Positions 2-55,113 of a stretch of 64,000 nt of DNA are shown here, one piece after another. This DNA comes from Dehalogenimonas formicexedens. Lineage in GTDB: Bacteria; Chloroflexota; Dehalococcoidia; Dehalococcoidales; Dehalococcoidaceae. The stretch spans positions 1,206,210-1,270,209 of the forward strand of contig NZ_CP018258.1 in NCBI RefSeq assembly GCF_001953175.1. The letters run 5' to 3'. Below the pieces are notes generated by a model, which was not told where the DNA came from, searched no databases, and saw only the letters and a list, made by a program, of their open reading frames with translations. Both the position numbers and the translations under genes were made by a program. The number at the start of each line of letters is the position of its first letter. Within the stretch, counting starts at the first letter, position 1.

Positions 2-361
2 TTGATCCACCGGACCATGACCGATCCGGCTTTTCAACCTGATACCACCCTCACTCCGGCTGAGATACAGGCGGCCGCAGATTTGATGACCGGGGTTTTC
101 TCCTTCATGGCTGTAGCGGGCATACTTCTCTCCATTTTCATTATCGTGGCAGGTGCTTATGCCCTCAAACGTAGGGCATGGGGTTTGGGTTTGGCGGGTT
201 CGATCGTTGGCTTGTTTGTCTTTTTACCCACCGCTATTCCCGCCCTGGTTTTCATGGCCCTGTCCAAACCGGAGTTTGAATCTAGGGCTTCCCGGCAGAC
301 TTTCCCGGGCGAAGATCAACCAAACCGTCTAAATCCCCCGGGAACCCCGCACGGCGGCTAG
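2..361 (+). CDS. Small two-span membrane protein of unknown function, possibly cut by the window edge
   Basis: The open frame starts at the window edge (TTG at 2-4), so the true start may lie outside; an ATG at residue 6 is an alternative. Two hydrophobic segments at about residues 33-55 and 60-87, separated by a basic KRR turn, predict two membrane spans. The last 30 residues are polar and rich in proline and arginine, probably cytoplasmic. I do not recognise the family and assign no function. It lies upstream of rpsB on the same strand but is separated from it by rpsB's own promoters, so it is unlikely to be part of that operon. Confidence 0.55.
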   Translation: MIHRTMTDPAFQPDTTLTPAEIQAAADLMTGVFSFMAVAGILLSIFIIVAGAYALKRRAWGLGLAGSIVGLFVFLPTAIPALVFMALSKPEFESRASRQTFPGEDQPNRLNPPGTPHGG

Positions 362-415
362 TCTCTTGCTGCCCGCCGAAGGCGGATCCGGGGCGCAAGC
401 ACCGGTTTATTTCCG

Positions 416-457
416 TTGCCCGGCTTATGGCGTTGTGATATACTGCTGTGTTATACT
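416..457 (+). promoter_or_regulatory. Tandem extended -10 promoters for rpsB-tsf
   Basis: TTGCCC (416-421) lies 17 bases upstream of TATACT (439-444), which is preceded by TGA to make an extended -10. A second TG-T-TATACT (449-457) follows immediately. Both sit 45-65 bases before the rpsB start. The boxes are read directly; use of both is inferred. Confidence 0.6.
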
Positions 458-502
458 TACCACTTGGCTAAATACGCGTGCCTAAATTTAGGAGGAGATC
501 AC

Positions 503-1279
503 TTGCCGACCACAACCACCATTAAGGAATTACTAGAGTCCGGGGCGCACTTCGGTCACCAGACCAGCCGCTGGCACCCCAAAATGAAGAAGTACATCTT
601 CACCAAGCGTAACGATATCCACATTATCGACCTGGAAAAGACGGTCGTCATGCTGGATAAGGCGCTGGCGTTTGTCGATAAAATTGTGTCCGAGGGCGGC
701 AAAATCCTCGTCGTGGGCACCAAAAAGCAGGCCCAGGAAATCGTCGCTGAGGAAGCCAAGCGCGGCGGCCTGTACTACATTAACCAGAGATGGATCGGCG
801 GTATCCTCACCAATTTTGCCGCCATTCAAAACCGGATTGATTACCTGGTCAGGCTGGAAGACCAGCAGGCCCGGGGCGAATTGGCCCGCCTGCCCAAGAA
901 GGAACAGCAGAACCTGGCCGATGAAATGGCCCGTCTGAACAAGATGATGGGCGGCTTCAAAGAAATGACTGCCTTACCGGATGTCATTCTCATTGTTGAC
1001 CCGACTAAAGAGAAGATCGCCCTGGCGGAAGCCCGGCGCATGGGTATCCCGATCGTCGCCATGGTCGACACCAACTGCAGCCCGGAGGGTATTGATTATC
1101 CGATTCCCTCGAACGACGACGCCATGAGGGCCATCAAGCTGGTTCTCGGCAAAGTCGCCGACACCGCTATCGCCGCCAGAGAAGGGCTTTCCAAGGTCGA
1201 GGTCGAACAGGTGAACAATGCCCCGGCCGAGGCCGAACTCCTTGAAAAACAGGCTGCCGACGCCGAACTCGGTGCCTAA
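503..1279 (+). CDS. rpsB: 30S ribosomal protein S2
   Basis: Ribosomal protein S2, a late-assembling protein of the small subunit at the head-body junction. The 258-residue product has the S2 hallmarks: LLESGAHFGHQTSRWHPKMK near the N terminus, the HIIDLEKT strand, and the GILTNF and PDVILIVDPTKE segments in the second half. The start is TTG at 503 because a strong Shine-Dalgarno (GGAGGAG, 491-497) precedes it at normal spacing and the protein then begins where S2 proteins begin; the frame is open from 416 but that part runs through the promoter. tsf follows after 20 bases, the usual rpsB-tsf pair. Confidence 0.96.
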   Translation: MPTTTTIKELLESGAHFGHQTSRWHPKMKKYIFTKRNDIHIIDLEKTVVMLDKALAFVDKIVSEGGKILVVGTKKQAQEIVAEEAKRGGLYYINQRWIGGILTNFAAIQNRIDYLVRLEDQQARGELARLPKKEQQNLADEMARLNKMMGGFKEMTALPDVILIVDPTKEKIALAEARRMGIPIVAMVDTNCSPEGIDYPIPSNDDAMRAIKLVLGKVADTAIAAREGLSKVEVEQVNNAPAEAELLEKQAADAELGA

Positions 1280-1299
1280 GCTGAATTAATTAGAGGTTT

Positions 1300-1809
1300 A
1301 TGAAATTGCAGATATCAGCCGAACAAGTAAAAGAACTGCGCGAAAAATGCGGCGCGGGCGTTATGGAATGCCGGAATGCCCTGGTCGAATCGCAGGGTGA
1401 CGTCAACAAAGCATTCGAGGCCCTTCAGGCCAAGGGCTTTTTAAAGGCTGCCAAAAAAGCCGAGAGGGTCACCGGACAGGGCCTGGTTGAAGCGTACGTG
1501 CATACCGGCGGGCGCGTTGGTTCCCTGATCGAACTCAATTGCGAAACCGACTTTGTCGCCAGGACTGACGAATTCAAAAAACTGGCTCATGACGTTGCGA
1601 TGCAGGTGGCCGCTATGTGCCCGATCTACGTCAACGAGTCCGACCGTCCGGAGACCTGTGAAGTTGAAGCCAGCAGCGCTTGCTTGATGCTTCAACCTTT
1701 CATCAAGGATCCTTCGAGGACGATCAAAGATCTTATTACCGAGGGTATTGCGCGCACCGGTGAGAATATCCGCCTTAAAAGGTTTGTCAGGTTCGAACTG
1801 GGCGGTTAA
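1300..1809 (+). CDS. tsf: Translation elongation factor Ts (short form)
   Basis: EF-Ts, the guanine-nucleotide exchange factor that recycles EF-Tu. The 169-residue protein opens with a UBA-like domain containing VKELREKCGAGVMECRNAL and continues with the core signature ELNCETDFVARTDEF at about residues 78-92. It is a short form: E. coli EF-Ts has about 280 residues with a second core subdomain and coiled coil that are missing here, as in other short bacterial and organellar versions. The ATG at 1300 follows a GAGG ribosome site. It is co-transcribed with rpsB. A stem-loop lies between it and pyrH. Confidence 0.95.
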   Translation: MKLQISAEQVKELREKCGAGVMECRNALVESQGDVNKAFEALQAKGFLKAAKKAERVTGQGLVEAYVHTGGRVGSLIELNCETDFVARTDEFKKLAHDVAMQVAAMCPIYVNESDRPETCEVEASSACLMLQPFIKDPSRTIKDLITEGIARTGENIRLKRFVRFELGG

Positions 1810-1820
1810 CCTAGGCTTGA

Positions 1821-3211
<1,391 letters not shown>

Positions 3212-3231
3212 TCTTCGTATCTGGTTGATGA

Positions 3232-3265
3232 ACAGGGCGCCCCCAAAGGCGCCCTGTCTGTTATT
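3232..3265. terminator. Hairpin between convergent frr and CDGSH gene
   Basis: A 10-bp perfect stem, ACAGGGCGCC (3232-3241) with GGCGCCCTGT (3248-3257), has a six-base loop. The trailing tract (CTGTTATT) is only moderately T-rich. Its position between two convergent genes suggests a bidirectional terminator. Confidence 0.7.
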
Positions 3266-3965
3266 CGCTCGATCTGAATTTGAATTCCAGGTGGCTGCCG
3301 TCGCAAAAAGGCATGTTGCTGGAATGGCCGCAGCGGCAGAGGGTAACCCTGTTACGCCGTTCGTAATCGAAGCCATCGGACGATTCGATGGGGATGCCGC
3401 CCCGCACCCAGATTGGACCTGAAAACCCGGCCGGAACGTCCTCGATAAGCCCGATCGAAGGCGTTAACTCGGGCTCGATAACGTTACCGTCCTTGTCTTT
3501 CAAAACGATTCTTCCGGACGGGCACTCTGACGCTTCTTCAATGGCGATCTTACGGCATTCCTGATCGTCCGATTTTTTCACCAGGTGCCAGGTGTCTCCG
3601 GCTCGCTGGCAGAAACGCGCTTCGGCGCATAGAATCGGCACTTCAGATAAGGTCAAATCCGGACCTACGACTTCGACTGATTGAGTGGAAAAAGACGCAC
3701 GGCTGGCAGTTTCGGTACCGTCGAAACCCGACCGGTAATGTGATCCATCGCAGAACGGCTTATTCTTCGACTTGCCGCACCGGCACAGGGTGTATGTTTC
3801 AGGAACTTCAAATACCTTTCCCTGGCGCCAGCCGTGGCAATGACCCTCCGCGTCCTGGCAAATGATCTGTTCGGCAAGCGGCAGGCCGCCGCTCACTACA
3901 TAGGGTCCGTTTTTGGTGATCTTGATCCGGTAACTATCTTCACTCGGTTCGTGTCCCGTATTCAT
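3261..3965 (-). CDS. CDGSH iron-sulphur protein with two CDGSH motifs
   Basis: A 234-residue protein with two [2Fe-2S]-binding CDGSH motifs of the C-x-C-x(9-10)-CDGSH type: CRCGKSKNKPFCDGSH at about residues 62-77 and CRCGHSSNMPFCDGSH near the C terminus (about 210-225). Between them lies a segment with several cysteines resembling the divergent 4Fe-4S mono-cluster domain often joined to CDGSH domains. MitoNEET-type clusters are redox-active and labile, so a role in electron transfer or cluster trafficking is plausible, but the partner is unknown. It is convergent with frr and overlaps its terminator region. The start is ATG at 3965. Confidence 0.85.
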   Translation of the reverse strand: MNTGHEPSEDSYRIKITKNGPYVVSGGLPLAEQIICQDAEGHCHGWRQGKVFEVPETYTLCRCGKSKNKPFCDGSHYRSGFDGTETASRASFSTQSVEVVGPDLTLSEVPILCAEARFCQRAGDTWHLVKKSDDQECRKIAIEEASECPSGRIVLKDKDGNVIEPELTPSIGLIEDVPAGFSGPIWVRGGIPIESSDGFDYERRNRVTLCRCGHSSNMPFCDGSHLEFKFRSSE

Positions 3966-4051
3966 ACGACATCCTCAGAAAAGTGCATTATTATATCATG
4001 AGAGGAGGATTCCACCGGCATTTTCTCGATAAAAAATATGGTAATTATCCC

Positions 4052-4081
4052 TTGACAACAAGTACTCACCTATGCTAGACT
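4052..4081 (+). promoter_or_regulatory. Sigma-70 promoter of the accessory patch
   Basis: TTGACA (4052-4057), an 18-base spacer, then TAGACT (4076-4081) preceded by TGC, making an extended -10. Predicted transcription starts near 4088, just ahead of the 80-residue gene at 4110. Confidence 0.7.
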
Positions 4082-4109
4082 GGGTTTAATAAGTTAGAGA
4101 GGTGTTCAA

Positions 4110-4352
4110 GTGCTGGATTCAGAACTTAGATACACGATGATAAACAACCTTAAAGAACTTGAACGCGACATCATTAACAGGGAACTTCCTATTGCGACTC
4201 GCGGTGTCGAGATTTTTGGTAAAAGCGGCGAATACATCGACGAAAACAAGAAACGATATTGGATAGCAGCCTATATTTCTGTGGAATCGAAGTCTGATGT
4301 TGAGCGCATTCACTCTTATCTTGCAGATTATGGTAGTACCAAGAATCAGTAA
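4110..4352 (+). CDS. 80-residue protein of unknown function next to the transposase
   Basis: A GTG start at 4110 follows AGAGAGG and lies about 22 bases after a good promoter, so the frame is likely expressed. The 80-residue product is charged and soluble, with an N-terminal helix (NNLKELERDIINRELP) and a likely beta-strand core (RYWIAAYISVESKSD); no signal peptide, cysteine motif or known domain is visible. It is 36 bases upstream of the transposase on the same strand and has the same A+T-rich composition, so it may be cargo or a regulator of the insertion sequence. I do not recognise the family. Confidence 0.55.
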   Translation: MLDSELRYTMINNLKELERDIINRELPIATRGVEIFGKSGEYIDENKKRYWIAAYISVESKSDVERIHSYLADYGSTKNQ

Positions 4353-4388
4353 CGATTGATCTCATAATTTACTCCAAAGGGGTTGACT

Positions 4389-5261
4389 ATGGAACGCTAC
4401 ACAATCAAAGACTTCAACAAGGACTTTCCCGATGATGCCTCTTGTCTCGAATGGTTAAGAGGTTATCTGTATCCTGAAGGGATTACTTGCAAGGCTTGTG
4501 GCAAGGTAACTAAGCATCATCGCGTTACCAACCGCGCCTGTTTTGTTTGTGATAATTGCGGAACTCAAGTCTATCCGATGGTTGGTACAATCTTTGAGAA
4601 ATCCAGTACATCTCTTAAGACTTGGTTTTATGCCATATTCCTGATGAGCCAAACAAGGTGCGGGATCTCTGCCAAGCAAATTCAACGCGAGACAGGCGTA
4701 ACCTATAAAACAGCGTGGCGAATGTTTCACCATATAAGGACACTACTTCAAGAGAATGTAGGCGTATTTAAGGGGCAAGCAGAGGCTGACGAGACATATA
4801 TCGGTGGCGCAAGGAAGGGCAAGCGCGGACGTGGTGCTGCGGGTAAAACTCCCGTTGTCGGTATTGTGGAGCGCAAAGGAAAGATAGCCGCTAAAGTGGT
4901 CGGTGATTGCAAATGTAATTCACTTCAACCGTTTATCAACAATCACGTTGACTGGCATACCAAGCTATACACAGACAATTATCGAGGATATGATGGATTA
5001 GATTTCTACGTTGGTGAACACGAGACTGTAGATCACGATAATGACGAATGGGTACGCGAGGACGTTCACACGAATACTATTGAGGGTTTTTGGTCCTTGA
5101 TGAAGCGCGGGATTTCGGGTGTTTACCACGCTGTTTCACCCAAGTATTTGCAGAACTATGTGAATGAGTATGCGTTTCGTTACAATCATCGCCAGGACGA
5201 GACTCCGATGTTTCAGTCTTTCCTTGGTCAGATCGCGAGCAAGCCTTCTTTAAGTCCTTGA
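4389..5261 (+). CDS. IS1595-family (ISXO2-like) transposase
   Basis: A 290-residue DDE-type transposase. The N-terminal zinc ribbon has two cysteine pairs (CKAC and CDNC, about residues 37-60), followed by a helix-turn-helix (SAKQIQRETGVTYKTAWRMF). The ISXO2/IS1595 catalytic domain shows ADETYIGGARKGKRG (first acidic residue), YTDNYRGYDGL (second) and HTNTIEGFWSLMKRGISGVY with the last acidic residue. The start is ATG at 4389 because AAAGGGG (4376-4382) sits 6 bases upstream. The frame is intact, so it could be active. I could not find terminal inverted repeats or a target duplication, so element ends are undefined. Base composition is clearly A+T-rich against the neighbours. Confidence 0.9.
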   Translation: MERYTIKDFNKDFPDDASCLEWLRGYLYPEGITCKACGKVTKHHRVTNRACFVCDNCGTQVYPMVGTIFEKSSTSLKTWFYAIFLMSQTRCGISAKQIQRETGVTYKTAWRMFHHIRTLLQENVGVFKGQAEADETYIGGARKGKRGRGAAGKTPVVGIVERKGKIAAKVVGDCKCNSLQPFINNHVDWHTKLYTDNYRGYDGLDFYVGEHETVDHDNDEWVREDVHTNTIEGFWSLMKRGISGVYHAVSPKYLQNYVNEYAFRYNHRQDETPMFQSFLGQIASKPSLSP

Positions 5262-5284
5262 AAAATTGATCTCGCGTAATACTT

Positions 5285-5959
5285 TCATTTTGCTGTTTCA
5301 TCTACAACCTTCAACTCGAAGGATTTAAGTTGACGTGACGATTCGTTAAACAGATGAATCGTTGTTACTAAATCCCCGTTCCATTCCCCGTTCGTAAAGA
5401 ATTGTACCAAATAATCAAGGGTTTTATTTTTGTGGCTATGTAATTCGGGCGAGTACCAAATATCAACATCACCTAATCTTTTACCATATGTCTTAGTTAT
5501 ATTTAACGATTGTTGGTTTAAGTCCGATATCTTAATCAGCCTGGGTTTATTTTTGTCATCCCCAACCAATCTCAAGGAGATTCCATCGACACTCCAAGAT
5601 TTTCTGGGTTGTAATTCTAAAAATATGACATGCCTGTCGTCTTTTTGAGAATGCTTGATCAGTCTTATTTGGTCTTGGCGTAACCAGTTTTGAGGAAGTG
5701 CTTCTTGTGCCCTCCCCCCTCTAATATCAGCATCGGTTGGATCTGAAATGGATCCCTTTTTATATCCATGCTCAATCTTGAATGGATTGTGTTTAAGATT
5801 AGTTGAATATCCCCATCTGATTAAAGGTAAAATGATCGCCGTTAAAATCAAAATGGCAAGCGTTACGATTGAAGTAGGACTACCCCAATCAGTTATTGCC
5901 ACAATCAAAGCTCCCAAATAAACTACAATTTGAAGAGTAGTATACTTCAAACGTCCCAA
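5285..5959 (-). CDS. Two-span membrane protein of unknown function in the A+T-rich patch
   Basis: A 224-residue product convergent with the transposase, 23 bases between stops. The N terminus has two hydrophobic spans (about residues 10-24 and 28-48) with a short loop; the remaining 170 residues look soluble and mixed alpha/beta, with several strand-like stretches (HVIFLELQPRKSW, DYLVQFFTNGEWNGDLV). No signal peptide cleavage site, catalytic motif or known domain is visible. Codons are markedly A+T-rich compared with core genes here, consistent with recent acquisition together with the insertion sequence. Function unknown. Confidence 0.6.
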   Translation of the reverse strand: MGRLKYTTLQIVVYLGALIVAITDWGSPTSIVTLAILILTAIILPLIRWGYSTNLKHNPFKIEHGYKKGSISDPTDADIRGGRAQEALPQNWLRQDQIRLIKHSQKDDRHVIFLELQPRKSWSVDGISLRLVGDDKNKPRLIKISDLNQQSLNITKTYGKRLGDVDIWYSPELHSHKNKTLDYLVQFFTNGEWNGDLVTTIHLFNESSRQLKSFELKVVDETAK

Positions 5960-6011
5960 CTTACATAGAACTATTTCATTGACAGACTTATTTTTGAGAG
6001 TAGAATAAACT

Positions 6012-6105
6012 CACCCGAAAGGGTAGGCACGGCGGAATCCTACGTCTAATCCACTTGGCAATTTAGCTGAAAAGGCGCGGCTAATAGCCGAGAAAGGAGA
6101 AGACG
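6012..6105 (+). ncRNA. Candidate structured RNA leader of a 36-residue peptide gene
   Basis: Several nested helices are visible: ACCC-GAAA-GGGT (a GNRA-capped hairpin at about 6013-6024), GTAGG/CCTAC (6023-6027 with about 6038-6042), and CGGCT-AAT-AGCCG (6078-6090), all before the ribosome site at 6094-6099. I could not match it to a riboswitch class I know. It is proposed only from the density of perfect stems. Confidence 0.35.
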
Positions 6106-6242
6106 ATGGCTAAAACACAAGGGGATAAAAAGATCGTCTATGTTCACGGATATACAAAATACGTGAACGGGCAAAAAGTGATAGTGCCGCCGTTCTATCG
6201 GTCGACACCTAACTAAAGCGGGATGATCAATCCGCCGTGCCT
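6025..6242. repeat. 12-bp inverted repeat enclosing the 36-residue peptide unit
   Basis: AGGCACGGCGGA (6025-6036) and TCCGCCGTGCCT (6231-6242) are perfect reverse complements 194 bases apart, flanking the leader and the short gene. They could be terminal repeats of a tiny mobile unit or a long-range RNA helix. The right arm also takes part in a local hairpin, GCGGGAT...ATCCGC (about 6218-6236), followed by a U-rich tail like a terminator. No target duplication is evident. Confidence 0.5.
6106..6216 (+). CDS. 36-residue peptide with a GYTK...VPPFYRSTPN pattern
   Basis: ATG at 6106 is preceded by AAAGGAGA at ideal spacing and reads 36 codons to TAA at 6214-6216, giving a basic soluble peptide. 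Its second half, VHGYTKYVNGQKVIVPPFYR, resembles a short motif (GYt-x-x-dGt-x-V-x-PhyR-s-x-P) that I recall from small bacterial and phage proteins; that recollection is unverified. The strong ribosome site, the structured leader and the terminator-like hairpin after the stop argue that it is a real gene rather than chance. It lies at the edge of the A+T-rich patch. Function unknown. Confidence 0.55.
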   Translation: MAKTQGDKKIVYVHGYTKYVNGQKVIVPPFYRSTPN

Positions 6243-6296
6243 TTATTATATCCCTAAGCTATTTAAACGCAATACTTGTCCCTAAGGGATATGTAC

Positions 6297-6366
6297 CAAA
6301 AATATTTAGCCAAAAACGACACGAAACGCTTGACACCCCTAACGAACCCTTGTGCTATAATATCGC
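6297..6366 (+). repeat. Dispersed repeat A, copy 1, containing a promoter-like core
   Basis: This 70-base stretch is matched in inverted orientation at 17821-17888, sharing CCAAAAACGACAC, AAACGCTTGACA and TGTGCTATA. It carries TTGACA (6330-6335) and TGC-TATAAT (6353-6361) with a 20-base spacer, so each copy may drive outward transcription. Confidence 0.7.
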
Positions 6367-6392: not shown

Positions 6393-6556
6393 GTCTTTGC
6401 GAGCCCCCGATGAAATCGGGGGTGGCAATCTCCTCCCCACGAAATTGTCCACCGATCCCGGGAAATGCCGGAATCTATTGGGTGGGCAGGGGTAGGGCGA
6501 GCGGCCGCTCGCCCGCCTCGTACTGTCAACTGATAACTGAAAACTGATAACTGTCG
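6393..6556 (+). repeat. Dispersed repeat B, copy 1
   Basis: It is matched in inverted orientation at 17515-17702. Shared parts are the hairpin CCCCCGAT-GA-AATCGGGGG, the segment CCACCGATCCCGGGAAATGCC, a G+C-rich CGGGCGAG segment and the terminal heptad array. Copies A and B keep the same order in both places, so they form one compound element. Confidence 0.7.
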
Positions 6557-6557
6557 A
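6521..6557. repeat. AACTGNN heptanucleotide array (5 units)
   Basis: Period-7 units ACTGTCA, ACTGATA, ACTGAAA, ACTGATA, ACTGTCG in tandem. The first five bases are fixed and the last two vary, as in the other arrays of this window. Confidence 0.75.
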
Positions 6558-6593
6558 CTTGTTCGAATTGAAAGGATTGAATGAATTGAACGT

Positions 6594-6668
6594 GCGATAC
6601 GACTCCACGATTAAAACCTTCATAACCCAATCGTGTCGTTTCCCAAAAATTCGTCGCCCGCGCCCAAA
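6594..6668 (+). repeat. Dispersed repeat C, copy 1
   Basis: ATACGACTCC-A-CGATT...CCAATCGTGTCGTTTC repeats at 7057-7136 in the same orientation and in degenerate inverted form near 17436-17480. An internal CGATTGG/CCAATCG pair could form a hairpin in the better copies. Confidence 0.6.
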
Positions 6669-6975
6669 CAATTCAAACCCGGGCGGGGCGGTGAATATTG
6701 GACATTGGTATTATTGGTATCTTTCCCTCCGGGCGGGATTCGAAATGATTTGGTTTTGAAAACAATTCCTACGATTGCGTCAAAGCTAAAATTCAGGGAT
6801 TCGTTTCGCATTAAAAGGTTTTCCGAAACGCCGAAAAACAAATGCCACCCGCCGCCCCGCGTTAATCAGAACGGATTGTTCCCTTTGTTTTTGCCTTATT
6901 GGTCGTATTTGGCATCGGTAGTATTGGTGGTATTCCTGAAAGGCGGGATTCGTTCCATTCGTTTTCGTCCGGGAC

Positions 6976-7049
6976 AAACTGTTAACTGTCAACTGTGAAC
7001 TGTAAACTTTGAGGGAGGTCTGATAGCTGAAAGCTGATTGCTGACAGCC
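6976..7049. repeat. AACTGNN array followed by AGCTGNN array
   Basis: Units AACTGTT, AACTGTC, AACTGTG, AACTGTA occupy 6978-7005; after a short break AGCTGAA, AGCTGAT, TGCTGAC, AGCC follow at 7025-7049. Both keep the 7-base period. Confidence 0.7.
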
Positions 7050-7056
7050 CAAGTAT

Positions 7057-7136
7057 GCCATACGACTCCCCGATTGGAACCCTAACAATCCAATCGTGTC
7101 GTTTCTAAAAATCGTATGATCTGCGCCCGGACAAAC
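7057..7136 (+). repeat. Dispersed repeat C, copy 2
   Basis: Second direct copy of the unit at 6594-6668, with TACGACTCC-C-CGATTGG and CCAATCGTGTCGTTTC. It ends about 70 bases before pdxS. Confidence 0.6.
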
Positions 7137-54956: not shown

Positions 54957-54976
54957 CATACCAGTGAAATATCTGT

Positions 54977-55113
54977 CTCCGAGCCTGGCAACCTAAATCT
55001 CACGACATGGTTGAAAGGCCAGCGGGCGGGCAACCGCCCCAAGGGTAGCGCCGGAAACGGCACCGCCTCCCGCGGTTTGGAAAGGAGAGAAAGCAATGAC
55101 CGGATTCTCGGTT
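54977..55113 (+). ncRNA. Moco/Tuco-type riboswitch of tupABC
   Basis: The leader matches the molybdenum/tungsten cofactor motif as I know it: CTCCGAGCC at the 5' side (54977-54985), GGTTGAAAGGCC, a GNRA hairpin CCG-GAAA-CGG (about 55052-55060), and the 3' conserved block CGCCTCCCG...TTTGGAAAGG (55064-55085). CCGAG (54979-54983) pairs with CTCGG (55107-55111) to close the structure. An intrinsic terminator follows (55120-55155). With a tungstate transporter downstream, tungsten-cofactor sensing is the likely input. The open frame through this RNA is not coding. Confidence 0.82.

What the first reader, a model, noticed from the sequence alone, without database searches (positions are those of the whole stretch)
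6012..6242. Structured small transcription unit encoding a 36-residue peptide
Seen: a 230-base module with a GNRA-capped hairpin, two more perfect stems, a strong ribosome site, a 36-codon gene, and a terminator-like hairpin. The outer 12-bp arms (6025-6036 and 6231-6242) are perfectly complementary, and the right arm can also join the local hairpin, so two exclusive folds are possible. Inference: either a minimal mobile unit with terminal repeats or a self-regulating RNA that controls a small peptide. Its position at the edge of an acquired patch fits both.
Basis: partly seen in the sequence, partly recalled or inferred. Interest (0 to 1): 0.6.

Follow-up and report, generated by a model that had tools for sequence, protein, structure and literature searches.

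The report
Mobile micro-protein with end-locked mRNA
A jumping gene in this bacterium carries a tiny, self-contained gene for a 36-residue basic protein whose messenger RNA can fold so that its two ends zip together; relatives turn up on transposons, phages, plasmids and gene cassettes in about eleven bacterial phyla, and what they do is unknown.

Summary
The 36-codon ORF is a conserved gene under strong purifying selection (PHROG 21154, function unknown), sporadic in about 11 phyla and present in 1 of 156 genomes of its own order. The 12-bp arms are a long-range RNA stem, not terminal repeats: in six related units they align by sequence alone, and 7 of 12 pairs show changes on both sides (0 of 500 shuffles reach the covariation score). 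Seven further lineages have arms of unrelated sequence around the same gene. The real mobile element is a 2,258-bp IS1595-family transposon (4040-6297, perfect 8-bp duplication AAAAATAT) carrying the unit as cargo; another relative (L082) sits in a different transposon, also with an 8-bp duplication. In arm-bearing units the ribosome site is unusually occluded (19 of 22 above same-locus controls). This works like the end-locked mRNAs of type I toxins (hok, aapA), but the peptide is soluble and basic, no toxicity is shown, and antisense promoters stand out in only two lineages. Coding, cargo status and the stem are well supported; the lock on translation is inferred.

The parts
4032..4039 (.). 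left copy of 8-bp target-site duplication AAAAATAT
   Evidence: identical to 6298-6305
4040..4064 (+). left terminal inverted repeat of IS1595-family transposon (19 of 25 match the right one)
   Evidence: 4040-4066 identical in a congener's element (L090)
4110..4352 (+). 80-aa ORF inside the transposon, no family
4389..5261 (+). IS1595 (ISXO2-like) transposase
   Evidence: PF12762 7.2e-41, NF033547 3.7e-63
5285..5959 (-). 224-aa ORF, second passenger, no family
5979..6006 (+). promoter TTGACA-N16-TAGAAT of the unit
   Evidence: 11 of 12; 0 of 200 shuffles as good
6013..6024 (+). GNRA-capped hairpin expected at the very 5' end of the transcript (not conserved in relatives)
6025..6036 (+). 5' arm of the long-range stem
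   Evidence: 91.7% of cells paired, 7 of 12 pairs with changes on both sides
6043..6052 (+). anti-SD segment CGTCTAATCC predicted to pair with GGAGAAGACG
6093..6099 (+). Shine-Dalgarno AAAGGAG, partly occluded
6106..6216 (+). 36-codon gene of the PHROG 21154 family
6218..6235 (+). local hairpin that competes with the 3' arm (predicted minor)
6231..6242 (+). 3' arm of the long-range stem
6245..6272 (-). possible antisense promoter (perfect TATAAT, weak -35 TTGCGT); not above chance on its own
   Evidence: p 0.295
6273..6297 (-). right terminal inverted repeat of the transposon
6298..6305 (.). right copy of the target-site duplication AAAAATAT

Best explanation
The stretch is a self-contained transcription unit (promoter, 5' arm, ribosome site, 36-codon gene, 3' arm) carried as cargo by an IS1595-family transposon. 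Shown by sequence: the gene is a conserved, translated micro-protein family that travels on many kinds of mobile element; the arms are a covarying stem of the + strand RNA. Inferred: after transcription the two ends of the messenger pair, the Shine-Dalgarno is held by an anti-SD, and the gene is silent or slow until the lock is opened (3' trimming, refolding, or a binding partner). It thus works like the end-locked mRNAs of type I toxins such as hok and aapA, with a soluble, basic, possibly nucleic-acid-binding product instead of a membrane peptide.
For: Coding: phrog_21154 matches 53 of 53 members; dN/dS between 0 and 0.27 in all 18 pairs compared, 8 of them upper bounds that assume a dS of 3. 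Spread: 39 genome loci and 14 viral loci, two of which are the same contigs as genome loci, plasmids and phages, an integron cassette in Vibrio (attC recognised from memory); absent from 155 of 156 genomes of the order. RNA: (covariation 0.567 vs 0.339 shuffled, 0 of 500; 91.7% of cells paired vs at most 54.2% for slid partners); in the five intact rows the departures from Watson-Crick inside the helix are five G-U and no A-C, which points to the + strand RNA rather than a DNA hairpin; best flank-to-flank stem z>=2.5 in 17 of 61 loci against random places in the same locus and in 2 of 7 loci added later. Regulation: opening cost of -18..+5 is 12.3 kcal/mol in 22 arm units vs 8.75 in same-locus ORFs, higher in 19 of 22, p 6e-5; window 18.7, second highest of 59. 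In phage and Firmicutes units the SD is predicted to pair with bases just after the stop codon. Cargo: TIR and TSD; L082 likewise.
Against: No experiment: no transcript, no peptide, no phenotype. SD occlusion is not general to the family (28 armless units 8.4 vs 10.05 in controls). For the window, cutting off the 3' arm barely changes the predicted SD occlusion (18.7 vs 18.4), so the long stem may not be what closes the ribosome site there. Peptide is not hydrophobic (GRAVY -0.62; family median -1.34), unlike most type I toxins. No significant antisense promoter in the window (p 0.295). Six sequences are few for covariation, and the related loci were picked with the help of a stem score that allows G-U. 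Close relatives are counted separately in the 22.
Confidence: 0.55

Rival explanations
1. Autogenous control: the basic micro-protein binds its own structured messenger and represses itself, different lineages having evolved different RNA structures for the same protein, as known for ribosomal protein S15.
For: Each lineage has its own strong structure: arms in some, a long 5' hairpin in Patescibacteria (L040, L049, L054, L069), a possible pseudoknot in Bacteroidia (L044, L053, L058); median fold z of 61 units -2.58. Peptide is very basic (median pI 10.9) and modelled as a four-strand sheet.
Against: No shared protein-binding motif was found between the structures; nothing shows RNA binding.
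Confidence: 0.22
2. The long-range stem is only an end cap and terminator that stabilises a short transcript; the peptide is expressed constitutively and acts in trans (anti-defence, nucleoid or virion protein).
For: In Bacillaceae units (L027, L046) the 5' arm starts 5 bases after TATAAT and the 3' arm runs into a T-run; neighbours include restriction, Shedu and methylase genes.
Against: No T-run after the window's 3' arm; SD occlusion in arm units is above controls.
Confidence: 0.18
3. The arms are terminal inverted repeats of a tiny transposon.
For: Perfect 12-bp inverted pair.
Against: No target duplication at the arms; promoter lies outside; arms differ in sequence between units; G-U pairs; the real TIRs and TSD are at 4040/6297.
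Confidence: 0.03
4. The ORF is a chance reading frame in a non-coding RNA.
For: The whole stretch is highly structured.
Against: Homologous ORFs in about 11 phyla with dN/dS far below 1.
Confidence: 0.01

Closest known systems
aapA/IsoA type I toxin mRNAs of Helicobacter (PMC6733600, passages read) and hok/Sok (same passages)
   Same: Short ORF on a transcript whose 5' and 3' ends pair; SD held by an anti-SD, in Firmicutes units just after the stop codon; own promoter; carried by plasmids, phages, chromosomes.
   Different: Peptide is soluble and basic, not a membrane peptide; no antisense antitoxin shown; 3' trimming not shown; homology to these toxins was not tested.
Ribosomal protein S15 leaders (PMC4137082, PMC4684408: search listing and start of abstract only)
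   Same: One small protein family, several unrelated mRNA structures in different phyla.
   Different: S15 leaders act on a ribosomal operon; here 5' and 3' ends pair around a single short gene on mobile DNA.
PHROG 21154
   Same: The peptide is a full-length member.
   Different: The family is a sequence cluster with no function; the RNA and the transposon cargo are not part of it.
IS1595 family transposons
   Same: Transposase, TIRs, 8-bp duplication, passenger genes (family traits recalled).
   Different: The passenger unit described here; a congener's sister element (L090) carries a different passenger.
HU/IHF beta saddle and PBCV basic adaptor domain
   Same: Weak fold match over all 36 residues (Z 2.9); 1 of 53 members hits PF08789 at 0.057.
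   Different: Both below any threshold of trust; no helices, no dimer core in the model.

Membership tests
PHROG 21154 micro-protein family | full-length profile match | tested here: met
   E 8.8e-7, residues 1-36 to 11-46 of 47; 53 of 53 members
IS1595-family transposon | ISXO2-like DDE transposase | tested here: met
   PF12762 7.2e-41, NF033547 3.7e-63
IS1595-family transposon | terminal inverted repeats | tested here: met
   4040-4064 / 6273-6297, 19 of 25
IS1595-family transposon | 8-bp target duplication (length recalled for the family) | tested here: met
   AAAAATAT both sides
Type I toxin-antitoxin | short toxin ORF | tested here: met
   36 codons
Type I toxin-antitoxin | 5'-3' long-distance interaction with SD occlusion (hok/aapA subgroup) | tested here: met
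   predicted and covarying; not probed
Type I toxin-antitoxin | antisense RNA antitoxin | tested here: inconclusive
   antisense promoter p<0.05 in 6 of 21 arm units, five of them one clade; window p 0.295
Type I toxin-antitoxin | hydrophobic membrane peptide (usual, not universal; recalled) | tested here: not met
   GRAVY -0.62, pI 9.9
Type I toxin-antitoxin | toxicity of the peptide | not testable with these tools
   none
Mini-transposon bounded by the arms | target duplication outside the arms | tested here: not met
   CGAAAGGGT before 6025, TTATTATA after 6242
Any Rfam 15 family | gathering score | tested here: not met
   window and 15 related loci: no match at the unit; only chance-level matches at E<=10
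HU/IHF fold | structural similarity | tested here: inconclusive
   the first 16 VIA rows are HU/IHF-type or ASFV pA104R, Z 2.5-2.9, 36 residues aligned

The most novel reading that the evidence does not exclude
A new, phylum-crossing class of one-gene stability or conflict module for mobile DNA: an mRNA kept shut by pairing of its own two ends, encoding a soluble, basic, beta-sheet micro-protein that acts on nucleic acid rather than on membranes, and carried interchangeably by transposons, integron cassettes, phages and plasmids.
Probability: 0.25. Interest if true: 0.82.

Novelty: new variant of a known kind. Interest (0 to 1): 0.63.

Why it matters
If right, end-locked messengers are not peculiar to membrane-toxin systems of a few bacteria but a device that mobile elements in about eleven phyla use for one micro-protein, having rebuilt the lock many times with unrelated sequences. 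The family is small (32-55 residues), not annotated under the match on the Synechocystis and Marinobacter plasmids, and cheap to test. It also gives a clean case of IS1595 transposons that swap passengers.

Tried and rejected
Rfam at gathering and at E<=10: only chance matches at the unit. Pfam/NCBIfam for 53 members: nothing credible. PDB by sequence: nothing credible. PDB and viral fold libraries: no match at E<=0.001; VIA rows all Z<3. Other copies of the unit or the transposon in the same genome: none. Weak hits (6 genomes, E 0.127-0.552; L016, L017), L031 and H6 were dropped as not family. tblastn with L027 gave no match, probably the low-complexity filter. Text search for five peptide strings and the PHROG name: 0 papers; two searches also 0. 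So I found nothing in print, within those searches only. More type-A units in the orders or families of three relatives: none new. General claim that all family members hide their SD: rejected. L058 also lies between 12-bp perfect ends with an 8-bp duplication (353-4162), but the stretch is 3.8 kb, AT-rich and holds a tRNA match, so I call it probable only.

Dropped before counts: L077, L083, L086 were left out of the SD test (altered start, internal stop, early stop). Loci that look like the same place twice (L042/L024, L072/L035, L060/L058, L043/L028, L052/L030, L055/L029) remain in the 61; without one of each pair it is 15 of 55. Searches read alignment rows in place of some loci because of shared names; one search repeats 96 correctly, and the neighbour list lacks those loci. 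The opening costs of the 59 units came from stored flanks and are unaffected. Neighbour tallies cover 81 of the 90 neighbours listed.

Full report
The observation. The arms are the only perfect 12-bp inverted pair with a 100-250-base loop in the 64-kb window. The + strand RNA folds far better than shuffles (z -6.6), and better so than the - strand (z -4.0). A near-consensus promoter TTGACA-N16-TAGAAT precedes it; 0 of 200 shuffles have one as good. A start at about 6013 would make the GNRA hairpin the first thing in the transcript; that start is inferred. No + strand intrinsic terminator was found.

The gene is real. The 36-residue product matches PHROG 21154 over its whole length, and so do all 53 members I aligned. 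Relatives were found in plasmids of Synechocystis and Marinobacter, Marinitoga viruses and a Helicobacter prophage, in 39 genome loci whose titles span Pseudomonadota, Bacillota, Synergistota, Patescibacteria, Delongbacteria, Cyanobacteriota, Chloroflexota (with Dormibacteria), Bacteroidota, Campylobacterota and Thermodesulfobacteriota (phylum names partly recalled), and in viral contigs. With the Thermotogota host of the Marinitoga viruses that is about eleven phyla. In the window's own order 1 of 156 genomes has it, the window's own; in its class 7 of 393, the window's own included (one of these, L083, has a stop inside, and L086 ends early). In 18 pairs compared, dN/dS was between 0 and 0.27; 8 of the values are upper bounds that assume a dS of 3 where it was saturated. 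The product is basic (pI 9.9; family median 10.9) and hydrophilic.

The arms are a conserved RNA stem. I compared the best stem between the 130 bases before and the 90 bases after the ORF with 60 random places in the same locus: 17 of 61 loci have z of 2.5 or more, and in 16 of 61 no random place is as good. Of seven loci added later, two more do (L081 z 7.0, L082 z 4.5). The arm sequences fall into at least eight unrelated sets. Six units have arms of the window's own type at a similar distance from the ORF: window, L081, L082, L083, L064 and L074. A sequence-only alignment puts both arms in register. There 66 of 72 cells pair, 7 of 12 pairs have a change on both sides, the covariation score is 0.567 against 0.339 in shuffles (0 of 500), and no slid version comes near. 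RNAalifold finds the same helix unasked. Three of the six unpaired cells are in L083, whose ORF also has a stop codon inside. In the intact rows the non-Watson-Crick pairs inside the helix are five G-U and no A-C, as expected of a + strand RNA and not of a DNA hairpin; five cells is a small sample.

The mobile element. Inverted repeats 4040-4064 and 6273-6297 (19 of 25) are flanked by perfect 8-bp repeats AAAAATAT and enclose an IS1595-family transposase, two ORFs without family, and the unit. The element is single copy in the genome. A congener has a sister element: 4040-4066 identical, transposase 81% identical, right end 86% over 35 bases, but a different passenger, and no micro-protein was found in that genome. 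A family-level relative has a shorter version, 1,425 bp, with its left end 96% identical over 25 bases (L091). Independently, L082's unit lies in a 2,095-bp element with an IS1-like transposase, TIRs GGTAGTGGGTCA.TTT and a perfect 8-bp duplication CGATTCAC. L058 is a probable third case. In Vibrio cincinnatiensis the unit sits between two attC-like repeats, recognised from memory. In two Bacillaceae-type units the homology between otherwise unrelated neighbourhoods starts near the promoter and stops at the 3' arm (L024/L027: 2916-3151), so the unit itself seems to be what moves.

How it may work. In arm-bearing units the cost of opening -18..+5 is higher than in ORFs of the same loci (12.3 vs 8.75 kcal/mol; 19 of 22; p 6e-5), in armless ones it is not (8.4 vs 10.05, 28 loci). 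In the window the SD bases GGA pair with TCC 6050-6052, and GACG with CGTC 6043-6046; in phage and Firmicutes units the SD pairs with bases just after the stop codon. This is how aapA mRNAs are described: a 5'-3' long-distance interaction with the SD held by an anti-SD, preceded by transient SD-hiding hairpins, opened by 3' truncation (PMC6733600, passages read). The likeness is of mechanism. Against it: in the window, dropping the 3' arm hardly changes the predicted occlusion (18.7 to 18.4), so there the upstream anti-SD does the work and the arms may only secure the fold or protect the ends. Antisense promoters stand out in the five Rheinheimera/Alishewanella-type units (TTGAAA-16-TACAAT at -44, p 0.005 or less) and in L081 (TTGACA-17-GATAAT just beyond the 3' arm, 0 of 200), not in the window (p 0.295); that is 6 of 21 units but two lineages.

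The protein. AlphaFold2 with 46 sequences gives four short strands, mean pLDDT 83.9, pTM 0.40. The second-look alignment lists HU/IHF-type chains first, over all 36 residues, Z up to 2.9; this is below any level of trust and is a lead only. A similar core motif ends a zeta-toxin family protein of a Microbacterium plasmid and follows the signal-like start of longer proteins in Alteromonas and Aneurinibacillus.

Verdict. Coding, cargo status and the long-range stem are well supported. That the stem locks translation is plausible (about 0.55). That the product is a toxin is open. I file it as a new variant of a known kind, end-locked small mRNAs, and not as a type I toxin-antitoxin, because its antitoxin and toxicity are not shown here and its product is not of the usual kind.

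Noticed in passing
L048, L050, L056, L059, L065 about -44 to -71 from the ORF: Conserved antisense promoter TTGAAA-16-TACAAT inside the 5' leader in all five related gammaproteobacterial units; it would transcribe an RNA complementary to a heavily structured leader.
   Followed up: partly
L044, L053, L058, about -65 to -20 from the ORF: Possible H-type pseudoknot: GCC[loop]GGCTTGGTGTT[anti-loop], the loop and its complement seeming to change together in the three Bacteroidia units (read by eye).
   Followed up: no
L040, L049, L054, L069, about -110 to -20: Patescibacterial units have a long 5' hairpin in place of the arms, with many pair changes; L049 has the lowest fold z of all 61 (-7.4).
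   Followed up: partly
L090 1432-3261: Sister IS1595 element in a congener with a different 226-aa passenger that resembles an Ntn hydrolase (name recalled): the transposon swaps passengers.
   Followed up: partly
L105 2501-2590; L104; L106: A similar V.GY.R.DGT.V.PH.R motif ends a zeta-toxin family protein on a Microbacterium plasmid and occurs in longer proteins with signal-like starts.
   Followed up: partly
window 54965-55103 (+): Moco (molybdenum/tungsten) riboswitch, 75.5 bits.
   Followed up: no
window 6520-7110: Gene-poor stretch with AACTGATAACTG-type repeats and a 56-nt direct repeat (6593-6648 and 7056-7111, 82%) just right of the transposon.
   Followed up: no
L063 930-1530: Vibrio cincinnatiensis copy looks like a complete integron cassette between two attC-like repeats.
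   Followed up: partly
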